Shown: in pieces, positions 4,843 to 7,802 of the stretch
Layout of the letters: the number at the start of each line of letters is the position of its first letter
How positions within the stretch are numbered: the stretch's first letter is position 1
NCBI GenBank assembly: GCA_046759145.1
Contig: JBHIBR010000071.1
Location: forward strand, 1-7,802
Direction of reading: 5' to 3'
Length of the DNA: 7,802 nt
DNA from: JBHIBR01 sp046759145 [NCBI: Nitrospinota bacterium]
GTDB taxonomy: Bacteria; UBA8248
Made by a program: the position numbers and the translations under genes
The notes under the pieces: model-generated
Told to the model about the DNA's origin: nothing
The model's database searches: none
Seen by the model: only the letters and a program-made list of their open reading frames with translations

Positions 4843-5616
4843 CTAATAGAAGTACATCCCCCCGTTCACCAGGAAGGTCTGGCCGGTGAGGTAGCCGGCC
4901 TCCTCCGAGGCGAGGAAGGCGCAGAGCGCGGCCAACTCCTCGGGCTTCCCCAGTCTCCTCACGGGGACCTCCCGGACGCGCTCCTCCGGCCCCCAGGGGC
5001 GCTGCCAGGCGGGCTTCGTGTCCCGGTAGTACTTGTTCTGGCGGGGCTCGGTGTCCATGAGGCCGGGCCCCACATGGTTGCAGGTGACCCCGAAGGGGGC
5101 GAGCTCATGGGCGATGGCCCGGGTGAATCCGACCGCCCCCGCCTTGCCGGCCGCGGTGTGGGCGCCGGAGCGGGCGTAGAGGTGGGCGTGGCCGGTGATG
5201 TTGAGGATGCGCCCCCAGCCCCGGCGCACCATGGGCCCCGCGAAGGCGCGGGTGCAGTAGAACATGCTGTGGAGGTTCACCCCGATGAGGGTGTGCCAGT
5301 CCTCGGGGCTCATCTCCAGGAAAGGCACGAAGGGGCTCGCCCCCACGTTGTTGACCAGGATGTCCACCGGCCCGAGCTCCTTGAGCACCCGCTCCTTGAG
5401 CCCCTCCACCCCCTCGTGCTCCGCCACATCGGCCTGGACGGCCACGGCCCGCACGCCCGCCTCCCGGCAGGCGGCGGCCACCCGCTCGATCTCCTCGGGC
5501 GTGCTCCGGGAGTTGACGGCCACATCCGCCCCCTCGGCCGCGAGCCGGAGGGCGATGGCCCGGCCGAGACTCCGGCCTGCCCCCGTCACGAGGGCCCTCT
5601 TCCCCTTGAGCGACAT
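4843..5616 (-). CDS. Short-chain dehydrogenase/reductase-fold protein lacking the catalytic tyrosine
   Basis: A classical-length SDR (257 residues) closest in layout to FabG-like 3-oxoacyl reductases. Rossmann marks: VTGAGRSLGRAIA at 10-22 (Ser in place of the second motif Gly), ADV at 62-64, NNVG at 89-92, N114 in GVNLHSMF, PG at 184-185 in the HVGPG block, and LTGQTFLVNGG near the C-terminus. The active site is unusual: in NITGHAHLYARSGAHTAAGK the Lys (K158) is present, but the position four residues before it, normally Tyr, is Thr154, and the position 13 before that, normally Ser, is Thr141. I checked this on the DNA: GGC GCC CAC ACC GCG GCC GGC AAG. His153 and Tyr147 are nearby candidates for a substitute acid/base. 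Either it uses a different mechanism or it is a non-catalytic or binding relative. The start ATG has an excellent AGGAGGTGA. It probably shares a transcript with the upstream acyltransferase, 59 nt away. Confidence 0.9.
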   Translation of the reverse strand: MSLKGKRALVTGAGRSLGRAIALRLAAEGADVAVNSRSTPEEIERVAAACREAGVRAVAVQADVAEHEGVEGLKERVLKELGPVDILVNNVGASPFVPFLEMSPEDWHTLIGVNLHSMFYCTRAFAGPMVRRGWGRILNITGHAHLYARSGAHTAAGKAGAVGFTRAIAHELAPFGVTCNHVGPGLMDTEPRQNKYYRDTKPAWQRPWGPEERVREVPVRRLGKPEELAALCAFLASEEAGYLTGQTFLVNGGMYFY

Positions 5617-5621
5617 GGCGC

Positions 5622-5630
5622 TCACCTCCT
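5622..5630 (-). promoter_or_regulatory. Strong ribosome binding site of the SDR gene
   Basis: AGGAGGTGA on the minus strand is a full match to the 16S anti-Shine-Dalgarno, 8 nt (from AGGAGG) before the ATG at 5616. It fixes the start of the SDR and rejects the much longer frame that continues upstream through the acyltransferase. Part of it lies in a hairpin arm described separately. Confidence 0.8.
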
Positions 5631-5675: not shown

Positions 5676-6392
5676 TCACCTGCCCACCGGCTTCGGAGCC
5701 GCCTCCTCCCCCTTCGCGAGGGCCGCGATGGCCTCCATGATGCGCTCGGTTGCCCCCTGGAGCACTTCCCGCTCGGCCGGCAGGCCCCGGAACTCCGCCA
5801 GGTCCACCGGCGGGCCGAAGCGCACCCGGGCGCGCGAAGGGGTGAGGAGCCCCCAGAGGATGGAGTCGGTGGGAGGGGTCCCCGAAATGCGGGCCGGGAT
5901 GACCGGCACGCCCGTGCGCAGCGCGAAGAGGGCGACCCCCAGCTTCCCATCGCCCGGCGCCCCCGCCAGCCGGATACGCCCCTCGGGGAAGATGCACACG
6001 AGCCCCCCCGACCGCAACGCCTGCAGGGTCTTCCGCGTGGAGGCAAAATCGCGCCCGTCGCGCTCCACAGGGATGGCGTCCAAAAAGCGGAAGAACCACC
6101 GACAGAGGGGGAGCTCGTAGTACTCCCGGGCCATGGGGAAGACCATCAGCCGGGGCGAGGGGGCACTCAGGAGGAATGGGTCGGCGCTCGAGACGTGGTT
6201 AGAGGCAACGATGGCGCCCCCTCGGATGGGGATGTGCTCCTCCCCCTCGACTTGCAGGCGATGCCAAACGCGGCAAAAGAGCCAGTTGATAGAGGCCAGA
6301 AGGGGGAGCAGGGCAGCGGCCCTTCGCCCCTTGAGGTGAGAGGGATGGGGTATCGTCCTCCGCACGGGCCGCAATCGGTCTCCCCCGGCCAT
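5676..6392 (-). CDS. PlsC-type 1-acyl-sn-glycerol-3-phosphate acyltransferase family protein
   Basis: Membrane-associated acyltransferase that transfers an acyl chain to lysophosphatidic acid or a related acceptor in phospholipid synthesis. 238 residues, usual for PlsC. Motifs: SNHVSSADPF with the catalytic H66-x4-D71 pair, a region around 105-110 ending in PVER, and IFPEGRI at 134-140 (the FPEG glycerol-phosphate binding motif), followed by GVPVIPARISG at 161-171. A hydrophobic stretch at about 26-40 (AALLPLLASINWLFC) may be a membrane anchor. The ATG at 6392 is chosen because AGAGGGG lies 7 nt upstream; longer in-frame starts (6443, 6506) would run into the repeat array and add a Gly/Arg-rich leader. 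The downstream SDR makes a lipid-related pair plausible. Acceptor specificity cannot be read from sequence. Confidence 0.93.
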   Translation of the reverse strand: MAGGDRLRPVRRTIPHPSHLKGRRAAALLPLLASINWLFCRVWHRLQVEGEEHIPIRGGAIVASNHVSSADPFLLSAPSPRLMVFPMAREYYELPLCRWFFRFLDAIPVERDGRDFASTRKTLQALRSGGLVCIFPEGRIRLAGAPGDGKLGVALFALRTGVPVIPARISGTPPTDSILWGLLTPSRARVRFGPPVDLAEFRGLPAEREVLQGATERIMEAIAALAKGEEAAPKPVGR

Positions 6393-6472
6393 GGGCTTTC
6401 CCCTCTCTCCTCTGCCGCCGCCAAGCCCTCGCCGCCATCCCATCTTACAACAAGGGGGCATAAGAGTGGGCC
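6393..6472 (-). other. Leader region of the acyltransferase gene, no clear promoter
   Basis: This 80-nt stretch between the repeat array and the acyltransferase ATG contains the G-rich ribosome binding site (6400-6406) and a purine-rich run. It is the least GC-rich piece of the window (around 6441-6465) and has one weak -10-like TAAGAT (6447-6442) without a matching -35 box. I see no small gene in it. Confidence 0.4.
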
Positions 6473-6679
6473 CCGCGCCCCCGGCCCCCGGGGTGCCCGC
6501 CGGCACCCGGGCGGAGCGAAGGAGCCCACTCTCCTCGAGCCCCGGGAGGCGAGGGGGGCTTTAGGGAGCTGGCCCCCCGGGGTGCCCGGTGGCACCGGCT
6601 ACCGGGCCGGAGCGAATGAGCCCACTGTCTTCGAGCCCCGGCAAGCGAGGGGAGCCCTACAGAGCTGGCCCCCCCGGGG

Positions 6680-6705
6680 TGCCCGGTGGCACCTGCCACC
6701 GGGCA
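6680..6705. repeat. Perfect 12-bp inverted repeat in the repeat array
   Basis: TGCCCGGTGGCA (6680-6691) and TGCCACCGGGCA (6694-6705) are exact reverse complements separated by CC. As RNA an 11-bp stem with a 4-nt loop is possible. The matching place in the previous unit (6583-6608) keeps ten core pairs, one of them a G-U wobble in plus-strand RNA. The dyad is mutually exclusive with the smaller GGTGCC/GGCACC hairpin at 6678-6693. Confidence 0.75.
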
Positions 6706-6726
6706 GGAGCGAATGAGCCCATTCCG

Positions 6727-7802
6727 TCAAAGCCCCCGCAGCGGAGGGGGGCCCGAAAGAACGGGACCTTCGCCTGGGGCCGCCGTGGCCCCGGCCGCGA
6801 AATGGGGCAGCACGTATCTCTCGTAGAGCCGCAGTCCCGCCTCGGTCCTCTCGATGTCCTGTGGGATGAAGGAGAGGGTGAAGTAGCGCACCCCGGCCCG
6901 GACGTAGCGCTCGAGGGCCTCGATGCAGTCATCCGGGTTGCCGGCGAGGACGATGCCGAGCCGCACCAGCTCCTCGGCGGGCCAAGAGGCCCAGTCCCGC
7001 CGCCTGCGGAGGATTTCGGCCGCCCGCAGAGCCCTCCCCCGGTCCTCGTCGATGCAGGTCCAGAAGAGGGCGCCCGGGACCAGGGCTTCGGCGTCCCGGC
7101 CCGCGGCGCGAGCGGCCGCGCGGGCGCGCTCGATCCCCTGTTGGTACTCTTCCGGGTCGAGCCCCCTGTAGTGGGGGGCGGCCGGCGTCCAGCCATCGCC
7201 CAGGCGGCCCGCGAGCTCCTGAGAGAGTCTCCCCTTCCCCCCGAACCAGATGGGGGGGCAGGGCTTCTGGAGGGGCTTCGGCCAGAGAGGGGCGCGGTCG
7301 AGGCGGTAGTGTTTGCCCTGGAAGGACACCCAGCCGTCCTCGGTCCAGAGCTTGCGGATAACCTTGACCCCCTCGTCCAGCATCTCCATCCTGCGCCGAA
7401 AACTCCGCTCGAAGGGGAGGCCGAAGGCACAGAACTCCCGCTCGTTCCAGCCCGAGCCCACCTGGAGGAGGAGCCTTCCGCCCGAGACCACGTCCAGGGT
7501 CGCCCCCATCCGGGCGATGAAGGCCGGATGGCGCAGTGTGACGGGCGTGACCTGGGGCCCCACCCGGATGCGACGGGTGACCGCCGCGGCGGCGGAGAGG
7601 GTGGTCCACGCCTCGAGGAAGTAGGGCCGGGCGGGGTCGGCCGAGAGGGCGTAGTGGCGGTCTTCGGCGAGGAACATGTGGTCGGGCAGGTAGAGGCCGT
7701 CGAAGCCCACCTCCTCGGCGACCTGCGCGACCCGCCGGAAACGCTCGAAGGGGGTGTCCTGCCGCTGGCCGTAGATGTTGAGGAGGAGAGCAAACGTGAC
7801 GG
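6727..7802 (-). CDS. LLM-class (luciferase-like, probably F420/flavin-dependent) oxidoreductase, N-terminus cut by window edge
   Basis: A bacterial-luciferase-fold TIM-barrel oxidoreductase using F420 or reduced flavin; substrate unknown. The frame is open from codon 7800-7798 (VTFALLLNIYG) to a TGA at 6729-6727, giving 357 visible residues; the start should lie only a few codons outside. Internal GTG starts (for example at 7710) would delete the first beta strand. Family blocks (numbered from the first full codon): VGFDGLYLPDHMF at 31-43, PQVTPVTLRHPAFIARMGAT at 82-101, VSGGRLLLQVGSGWNEREF at 105-123, FQGKHYRL at 160-167 and PPIWFGGKG at 182-190, then LAGRLGDGW. The domain proper seems to end near YVLPHFA; the remaining 20 or so residues are Gly/Pro/Ala-rich and their last codons belong to the downstream repeat array. 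It is separated from the acyltransferase by about 330 bp, so it is probably a different transcription unit. Confidence 0.92.
   Translation of the reverse strand, partial: VTFALLLNIYGQRQDTPFERFRRVAQVAEEVGFDGLYLPDHMFLAEDRHYALSADPARPYFLEAWTTLSAAAAVTRRIRVGPQVTPVTLRHPAFIARMGATLDVVSGGRLLLQVGSGWNEREFCAFGLPFERSFRRRMEMLDEGVKVIRKLWTEDGWVSFQGKHYRLDRAPLWPKPLQKPCPPIWFGGKGRLSQELAGRLGDGWTPAAPHYRGLDPEEYQQGIERARAAARAAGRDAEALVPGALFWTCIDEDRGRALRAAEILRRRRDWASWPAEELVRLGIVLAGNPDDCIEALERYVRAGVRYFTLSFIPQDIERTEAGLRLYERYVLPHFAAGATAAPGEGPVLSGPPPLRGL
6732..6752 (-). terminator. Possible terminator hairpin at the end of the LLM gene
   Basis: In mRNA sense, GCCCCC (6752-6747), a 9-nt loop and GGGGGC (6737-6732) form a 6-bp all-GC stem followed by UUUGA, where UGA is the stop codon. 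The stem lies within the last codons of the gene and has only three U residues after it, so it is at best a weak intrinsic terminator; further stems in the downstream repeats could add to it. Confidence 0.3.

What the first reader, a model, noticed from the sequence alone, without database searches (positions are those of the whole stretch)
5138..5205. SDR with Thr in place of the catalytic Tyr, and Thr in place of Ser
Seen: the protein has the Rossmann motif, NNVG, N114 and K158, but the YxxxK tetrad reads TAAGK, with Thr154 for Tyr and Thr141 for Ser. Known: Tyr is the catalytic acid/base of classical SDRs and its loss usually abolishes dehydrogenase activity. The rest of the protein, with an ideal ribosome site and intact C-terminal NGG, shows no decay. 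Inference: either His153 or Tyr147 takes over, or the protein is a non-redox or ligand-binding SDR. The unusual C-terminal half (MDTEPRQNKYYRDTKPAWQ) suggests a distinct subfamily.
Basis: partly seen in the sequence, partly recalled or inferred. Interest (0 to 1): 0.6.

Follow-up and report, generated by a model that had tools for sequence, protein, structure and literature searches.

The report
Dehydrogenase-like clade lacking catalytic serine, tyrosine
This gene encodes a member of a large, conserved but apparently unstudied branch of the common short-chain dehydrogenase enzymes that lost both of its key catalytic residues long ago yet is still kept intact by selection, so the usual label of alcohol dehydrogenase or ketoreductase is probably wrong.

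Summary
The window encodes an intact 257-residue SDR (4843-5616, minus strand) with Thr154 where classical SDRs have Tyr, and Lys158 kept. The catalytic-Ser column is Gly142, not Thr141. The Rossmann motif is also changed: the middle Gly of TGxxxGxG is Ser16.

It is not an error or decay. Two 36%-GC genes (window gene 72%) from Chloroflexota-type genomes are 53% identical and keep Gly142, His153, Thr154 and Lys158. The protein sits in a clade of SDRs, found in Rokubacteria, Chloroflexota-type and a few Actinomycetota genomes, with Gly for Ser, V/I/N/T/C for Tyr, Lys kept, and Asn or Ser for the middle Rossmann Gly. With the motif columns removed, 44 such proteins form one side of a branch (99/86). 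In one order, 87 of 217 genomes match above threshold; all 53 matches read (of 140) lack Tyr. Six close pairs show pN/pS 0.03-0.19. Two of five relatives tested pass an NCBI FabG cut-off.

Best reading (inferred): an NADP(H)-binding, lysine-only oxidoreductase acting on an activated C=C bond, mechanistically like eugenol synthase. A pseudoenzyme subunit is the main rival. No activity is shown.

The parts
4843..5616 (-). SDR-family protein, 257 aa plus stop
   Evidence: PF13561 6.4e-52, PF00106 3.7e-49
5624..5629 (-). Shine-Dalgarno GGAGGT, 7 bases from the ATG
5569..5571 (-). Ser16 in place of the middle Gly of TGxxxGxG
   Evidence: N (41) or S (3) in 44 clade rows, G in 41 of 41 Tyr-type rows
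5275..5277 (-). Asn114 (retained)
5191..5193 (-). Gly142 in the catalytic-Ser column
   Evidence: G in 44 of 44 clade rows, S40/T1 in Tyr-type rows
5158..5160 (-). His153 (K-5)
   Evidence: H in 28 of 32 non-Rokubacteria clade rows (window included), A or V in 12 of 12 Rokubacteria rows
5155..5157 (-). Thr154 in the catalytic-Tyr column (K-4)
5143..5145 (-). Lys158, invariant catalytic or ribose-binding Lys
5002..5058 (-). Residues 187-205, substrate-loop segment MDTEPRQNKYYRDTKPAWQ; partly shared with the two orthologues (MDTPPR..YY) and Rokubacteria (DTERR..WYPE), variable elsewhere in the clade; low model confidence
6730..7800 (-). Context: LLM-class (F420-type TIGR03619) oxidoreductase, open at the window's end; related LLM genes sit next to the SDR in several Rokubacteria
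5676..6506 (-). Context: PF01553 acyltransferase between the LLM gene and the SDR (start codon uncertain)

Best explanation
The protein belongs to an apparently single-origin clade of SDR-fold proteins that exchanged the Ser-Tyr pair for Gly plus an aliphatic or small residue but kept Lys, most of the NAD(P) pocket and the C-terminal GG. Most likely it is still an NADP(H)-dependent oxidoreductase. The invariant Lys holds the nicotinamide ribose and, with water or with the substrate's own phenol, enol or thioester group in the space left by Tyr, supports hydride transfer to or from an activated carbon (a conjugated C=C, quinone-methide or enoyl/dienoyl thioester) rather than reduction of a simple ketone. 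It would act in catabolic pathways. Shown: residue states, clade, conservation, selection, gene context. Inferred: cofactor binding, redox activity, substrate class.
For: Lys kept in 57 of 57 Tyr-less rows and in all 46 non-window rows (10 of these are genes already, so 36 are new). Ser and Tyr are lost together: of 205 rows, none has Gly aligned at the Ser column with Tyr kept (3 Tyr rows have a gap there), and the only Tyr-less rows with Ser are two FabL-like ones with Tyr at K-7. One clade, 99/86, with the motif columns dropped. pN/pS 0.03-0.19 in six close pairs. Arg15 kept; Arg37 in 42 of 44 clade rows against 7 of 41 Tyr-type rows, which by a recalled rule favours NADP(H). Model pLDDT 91.9, best Foldseek matches FabG, several with NADP. 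Catabolic neighbours: SBP_bac_5, FAH, CoA-transferase III, enoyl-CoA hydratase, amidohydrolase, LLM oxidoreductases. LLM gene within about 30 nt on the same strand in 7 of 20 Rokubacteria neighbourhoods. Mechanistic precedent: eugenol synthase lacks the SDR Tyr, needs Lys132, and the phenol of a bound inhibitor sits roughly where the Tyr OH would be (PMC1991597, passages read).
Against: No activity, cofactor or substrate is known to me for any clade member found. The middle Rossmann Gly is replaced, which could weaken dinucleotide binding. Asn114 is not universal (20 of 32 non-Rokubacteria rows). Eugenol synthase is a distant, atypical SDR. Gene neighbourhoods differ between subclades: LLM genes were found in only 2 of the 14 Chloroflexota-type neighbourhoods, and the window's other neighbours (prenyl synthase, AMMECR1, Maf, aminotransferase) are not an obvious pathway. 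The LLM profile was trained on the test loci, several loci are versions of one cluster, and some control stretches are short.
Confidence: 0.42

Rival explanations
1. Pseudoenzyme subunit: a catalytically dead SDR that forms hetero-oligomers with an active SDR, as recalled for the BbsC subunit of BbsCD.
For: Both catalytic residues and a Rossmann Gly are gone while the fold, purifying selection and the C-terminal GG persist. BbsD (7pcs) is among the PDB matches.
Against: A second SDR gene appears in only 4 of 34 neighbourhoods in the gene calls (L100, L116, L164, L165; those calls miss genes). No other SDR among the seven other window proteins scanned. An invariant Lys would not be expected in a dead subunit. 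The inactive-subunit property of BbsC is recalled, not read.
Confidence: 0.2
2. Non-redox enzyme or sensor: NAD(P)-bound lyase, isomerase or ligand-binding protein.
For: Loss of the acid/base with the cofactor pocket largely retained; some neighbours are hydrolases, lyase-like enzymes or hydratase/isomerases.
Against: The column under Tyr varies (V, I, N, T, C), with no single replacement residue shared by the clade, so no new catalytic residue is evident there either.
Confidence: 0.18
3. A classical alcohol dehydrogenase in which His153 (K-5) or His143 replaces Tyr as acid/base.
For: His at K-5 in 28 of 32 non-Rokubacteria clade rows; His143 follows Gly142 in the window and in L135/L175.
Against: K-5 is Ala or Val in all 12 Rokubacteria rows; His occurs there in 13 of 41 Tyr-type SDRs, so it is not a compensating change. 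Its place relative to the cofactor was not measured.
Confidence: 0.1
4. Enoyl-reductase-type SDR with a displaced Tyr (Yx6K or Yx8K) or a dienoyl-CoA-reductase-type site (Ser/Thr at K-4).
For: Thr at K-4 resembles the Ser recalled for DECR1; CoA-transferase and enoyl-CoA hydratase neighbours in some loci; one of 54 clade rows (L186) has Tyr at K-7.
Against: The window has Gly151, Ser150 and Arg149 at K-7 to K-9, so no displaced Tyr; the FabL-like rows fall outside the clade.
Confidence: 0.08
5. Sequencing error, point mutation or decaying gene.
For: None found.
Against: AT-rich orthologues keep the state; clade-wide conservation; pN/pS 0.03-0.19 in six close pairs.
Confidence: 0.02

Closest known systems
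FabG / classical SDR (PF13561, PF00106)
   Same: Fold, length, NNxG, Asn114, Lys158, C-terminal NGG; best PDB matches are FabG or FabG-like
   Different: Ser to Gly, Tyr to Thr, middle Rossmann Gly to Ser; the window scores below the cut-off of each FabG model among the 25 of 225 families shown
Eugenol synthase / PIP family (PMC1991597, passages read)
   Same: Lacks the SDR Tyr, keeps Lys; proposed Lys-water-substrate phenol relay
   Different: Atypical SDR of plants, reported as probably monomeric; its sequence relation to the window was not tested
FabL / FabI / FabV enoyl reductases (PMC9260719, passages read)
   Same: SDR superfamily; no Tyr at K-4
   Different: They have Tyr at K-7 (Yx6K) or K-9 (Yx8K); the window does not, nor do 53 of 54 clade rows at K-7; two FabL-like rows lie outside the clade
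BbsC subunit of BbsCD (recalled)
   Same: SDR without catalytic residues
   Different: Works with an active SDR partner; no SDR gene was found beside the window's
SAR202 SDR paralogues, Sfam 1639 (PMC5395668, section 12 passages)
   Same: SDR expansion, by my recollection in the same phylum (Chloroflexota); proposed role in dissolved organic matter oxidation
   Different: That paper proposes alcohol-to-ketone oxidation; the terms tyrosine and catalytic residues were counted 0 times in its main text; whether its proteins belong to this clade was not tested

Membership tests
SDR superfamily | Profile match and Rossmann SDR fold | tested here: met
Classical SDR | TGxxxGxG | tested here: not met
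   Ser16 for the middle Gly
Classical SDR | Catalytic Ser | tested here: not met
   Gly142
Classical SDR | YxxxK Tyr | tested here: not met
   Thr154
Classical SDR | YxxxK Lys and Asn114 | tested here: met
FabG (NCBIfam equivalogs and subfamilies) | Score above curated cut-off | tested here: not met
   Window: NF004198 199.9 against 296; NF009466 197.6 against 222; below cut-off in all 25 families shown of 225. Relatives L178 and L121, 2 of 5 tested, do pass NF009466
FabI/FabL/FabV enoyl reductases | Tyr at K-7 or K-9 | tested here: not met
   Gly151 and Arg149 in the window; motif definitions from PMC9260719 passages
Gly142/no-Tyr154/Lys158 clade described here | N/S16, G142, non-Tyr154, K158 and placement in the clade | tested here: met
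BbsC-type pseudo-subunit | Adjacent active SDR partner gene | tested here: not met
   No second SDR among the seven other window proteins scanned; a partner encoded elsewhere cannot be excluded, as no genome is held
Lys-only oxidoreductase (eugenol-synthase-like mechanism) | NADP(H)-dependent hydride transfer needing Lys but not Tyr | not testable with these tools
   Needs enzymology

The most novel reading that the evidence does not exclude
A separate catalytic class inside the SDRs: a single-origin, multi-phylum clade with a changed cofactor loop (TGxxRNxG/TGxxRSxG), Gly for Ser and no Tyr, in which Lys alone serves hydride chemistry on activated C=C or thioester substrates. It would be widely used by uncultivated Chloroflexota and Rokubacteria to degrade organic matter, in Rokubacteria often with LLM flavin/F420 enzymes, and be annotated as FabG-like ketoreductases.
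Probability: 0.33. Interest if true: 0.75.

Novelty: new variant of a known kind. Interest (0 to 1): 0.6.

Why it matters
Tyr is treated as the defining acid/base of classical SDRs, and SDR expansions in uncultivated bacteria are read as alcohol dehydrogenases (for SAR202, PMC5395668). A whole clade that lost Ser and Tyr in what looks like one event, yet is under strong selection and has members in 87 of 217 genomes searched in one order, means some such assignments may be wrong. It also gives a clean test system for what an SDR can do with Lys alone.

Tried and rejected
Point mutation, error or decay: rejected by the AT-rich orthologues, clade conservation and low pN/pS. Thr141 as the Ser replacement: rejected, the column is Gly142. 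Tyr147 as the new catalyst: rejected, not conserved. Displaced Tyr as in enoyl reductases: not in the window; one of 54 clade rows (L186) has Tyr at K-7.

The best prenyl-synthase match among 15 genomes was 46% (a Rokubacteria genome). The genome-contig scan kept 80 loci with at most 44% identity; their best matches all carry Tyr (two, L006 and L008, lack the Lys), and the clade was missed, probably because the scan needs exact 8-residue words. In the PDB the top A2-profile score was 273.9 bits, and the five matches shown aligned keep Tyr; untrained Tyr-less proteins scored 299-341 bits with A2 (residues), so no solved clade member is evident, but the other PDB matches were not read residue by residue. 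Paper searches for Tyr-less or pseudoenzyme SDRs and for SAR202 or Rokubacteria SDRs listed no paper that by title or start of abstract treats this clade; subscription papers are mostly not held. The HSDL1 search and the DECR searches gave nothing on this clade. First gene calls in the GC-rich neighbourhoods picked antisense ORFs and were redone with codon-position GC, which still misses genes, in several loci the SDR itself.

Results against a simple picture: score thresholds are imperfect. L195, from an alphaproteobacterial genome, is Gly/Val/Lys yet scores only 272.8 bits, below some Tyr-type rows (up to 299.3). The empty answers for the phylum of G1220 (0 of 200 at 1e-86), of G013 (0 of 249 at 1e-65 with A1) and of G008 (0 of 199 at 1e-84 with A2) therefore do not show absence. 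The four matches at 1e-84 in the phylum of G012 (4 of 136 genomes) are all ordinary Ser/Tyr proteins. LLM genes are rare beside the Chloroflexota-type members (2 of 14).

Full report
What is there. The window (71% GC) carries on its minus strand an intact SDR gene, 4843-5616, 257 residues, with a Shine-Dalgarno GGAGGT seven bases before ATG and GC3 of 0.96. Pfam matches are PF13561 and PF00106, and weakly KR. Its neighbours are an acyltransferase and an LLM-class (TIGR03619, F420-type) oxidoreductase upstream, and a polyprenyl synthetase, AMMECR1, Maf, aminotransferase and part of a hydantoinase A downstream, all on the minus strand. No genome is held for the window.

The residues. HTAAGK is at 153-158, so Thr154 stands at the Tyr position (K-4). 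NITG at 139-142 aligns with NITS of FabG-type structures, so the Ser position is Gly142, not Thr141. TGAGRSLG at 11-18 has Ser16 where 41 of 41 Tyr-type relatives have Gly. Asn114, Lys158, NNVG and NGG are present. AlphaFold2, with 35 relatives from the genome-contig scan, gives pLDDT 91.9 and pTM 0.91, lowest around residues 191-210; the best Foldseek matches are FabG structures. Coordinates are not returned, so no distances were measured.

Relatives. A genome-contig scan kept 80 loci with at most 44% identity, whose best matches all carry Tyr. A search of 95 genomes in the phylum of G003 (the genome of a record titled Rokuibacteriota) found a set at 43-49% identity. Residues were read in 22 of those genomes (L085-L099, L113-L119) and all 22 have Gly for Ser, Val for Tyr and Lys. 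In the phylum of G005 (a record titled Dehalococcoidia bacterium, hence 'Chloroflexota-type' here), 8 of the 11 loci returned from 251 genomes were Tyr-less, with V, I or N. In a class search, L135 is 53% identical to the window and has NITGHA, AHTVAGK and MDTPPR; in an order search of 217 genomes a second genome (L175) has nearly the same gene, and only these two matched at the level of the window's own type (526 bits or more; next 261). These two genes are 36% GC against 72% in the window, and synonymous sites are saturated between L135 and the window, so the motif survives full synonymous turnover.

The catalogue. Among 205 SDR segments of 210 residues or more in the loci scanned (neighbourhood loci that repeat a gene were left out), 57 lack Tyr: 54 belong to the Gly/(V,I,N,T,C)/Lys type, two are FabL-like (Ser kept, Tyr at K-7), and one is a divergent Gly/Phe row (L021). 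The other 148 have Tyr; none of them has Gly aligned at the Ser column, though three have a gap there. This set was assembled by searching for relatives and holds near-copies, so the counts are not frequencies in nature.

One clade. An 87-row tree with the motif columns removed (44 Gly/Tyr-less rows, near-duplicate Rokubacteria rows thinned from 22 to 12; 41 Tyr-type rows picked by hand out of 144; 2 FabL-like) puts the 44 on one side of a branch with 99/86 support. The window groups with L135 and L175 (98/87) and with L124 (100/96). A quick tree gave the same clade at SH-aLRT 88. Column contrasts: position 16 N 41/44 or S 3/44 against G 41/41; position 142 G 44/44 against S 40/41, T 1/41; position 154 V 33, I 4, N 3, T 3, C 1 against Y 41; position 158 K in all. 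Position 16 was among the tree's columns.

How common. A profile of 30 members (A5) scored the 54 known clade rows 324.6 bits or more and Tyr-type rows 299.3 or less, though many clade rows had trained it. In the order of G725 (217 genomes drawn from a larger group; about 12 candidates scored per genome, so some may be missed), 87 genomes had a match at E 1e-92 or better, 140 matches by my sum of the table. Residues were read for 53 of the 140: the 30 best loci (13 new, 17 already read under other or the same ids), 20 picked among the lowest scores, and L135, L175 and L134. All 53 are Gly, non-Tyr, Lys. In the phylum of G1218 (Streptacidiphilus) 3 of 168 genomes matched at 1e-86 and all three were Tyr-less. 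Empty or negative results elsewhere are not proof of absence, since a Tyr-less protein from an alphaproteobacterial genome (L195) scores below the threshold.

Selection. Six close pairs give pN/pS of 0.03-0.19, so these are maintained genes.

Gene context. In 20 Rokubacteria neighbourhoods (260 kb) an LLM gene was found in 13, against 1 of 20 arbitrary contig stretches of the same genomes (205 kb, some stretches only 1-2 kb) and 2 of 14 Chloroflexota-type neighbourhoods (176 kb). In 7 of the 20 the LLM gene lies within about 30 nt of the SDR on the same strand (gene ends approximate). The profile was trained on LLM genes from the neighbourhoods and several loci are versions of one cluster, so the enrichment is suggestive only. 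Other recurrent neighbours by Pfam are SBP_bac_5, FAA hydrolase, FAD monooxygenase, aldo/keto reductase, zinc ADH and alpha/beta hydrolase (mainly Rokubacteria), CoA-transferase III and enoyl-CoA hydratase (three Chloroflexota-type loci each), and amidohydrolase and cyclase genes (both groups). The two orthologues sit beside an MFS gene and a PEP-mutase/ICL-like, 2-hydroxyacid dehydrogenase, DHDPS-like and glyoxalase set. In the window the LLM gene is two genes upstream on the same strand.

Mechanism. Lys is invariant while Ser and Tyr are gone together, and the cofactor-binding features mostly remain. That fits an NADP(H) enzyme whose substrate does not need a side-chain acid, with precedent in eugenol synthase (passages of PMC1991597: K132A and K132Q inactive, K132R 71% active, Tyr absent, inhibitor phenol near the Tyr OH position). 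The imine-reducing SDRs of PMC7540600 keep the Tyr (passages), so they are not the model. FabL/FabI/FabV move the Tyr (PMC9260719 passages); the window has none at those positions. The resemblance of Thr154 to a Ser in human dienoyl-CoA reductase, the BbsC pseudo-subunit and the Arg37/NADP rule are recalled. The mechanism is inferred, and a pseudoenzyme subunit or non-redox role is not excluded.

Annotation. The window is below the cut-off of each of the 25 NCBIfam families shown, of 225 matched. Relatives L178 and L121 pass the cut-off of NF009466, named 3-oxoacyl-ACP reductase FabG (224.7 and 224.9 against 222), 2 of the 5 relatives tested. The SAR202 paper (PMC5395668, passages of section 12) reports 60 SDR-family proteins in five genomes and proposes alcohol-to-ketone oxidation; whether those proteins belong to this clade was not tested.

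Noticed in passing
window 6477-6766: About three tandem copies of a 97-nt GC-rich unit (74-79% identity to the reference copy, spacing 96-97) between the acyltransferase and LLM genes; overlaps the last codons (6730-6766) of the LLM reading frame.
   Followed up: partly
L178, L121 against NCBIfam NF009466: Proteins without catalytic Ser and Tyr pass NCBI's curated cut-off for a FabG ketoreductase model, a likely source of wrong names.
   Followed up: partly
L186 (same gene as L221): A clade member with Tyr at K-7, the place of the enoyl-reductase Tyr; many other members have Thr, Arg or Trp there.
   Followed up: no
L195 (G1220:C27): A genome whose record is titled Alphaproteobacteria carries a Gly/Val/Lys SDR with Asn at position 16 that scores low on the clade profile: the clade may be wider than counted.
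   Followed up: no
L105, L112, L113, L115-L118: LLM oxidoreductase and Tyr-less SDR genes in operon-like spacing, with FAH, SBP_bac_5 and FAD monooxygenase genes nearby in several: a recurrent catabolic-looking cluster of Rokubacteria.
   Followed up: partly
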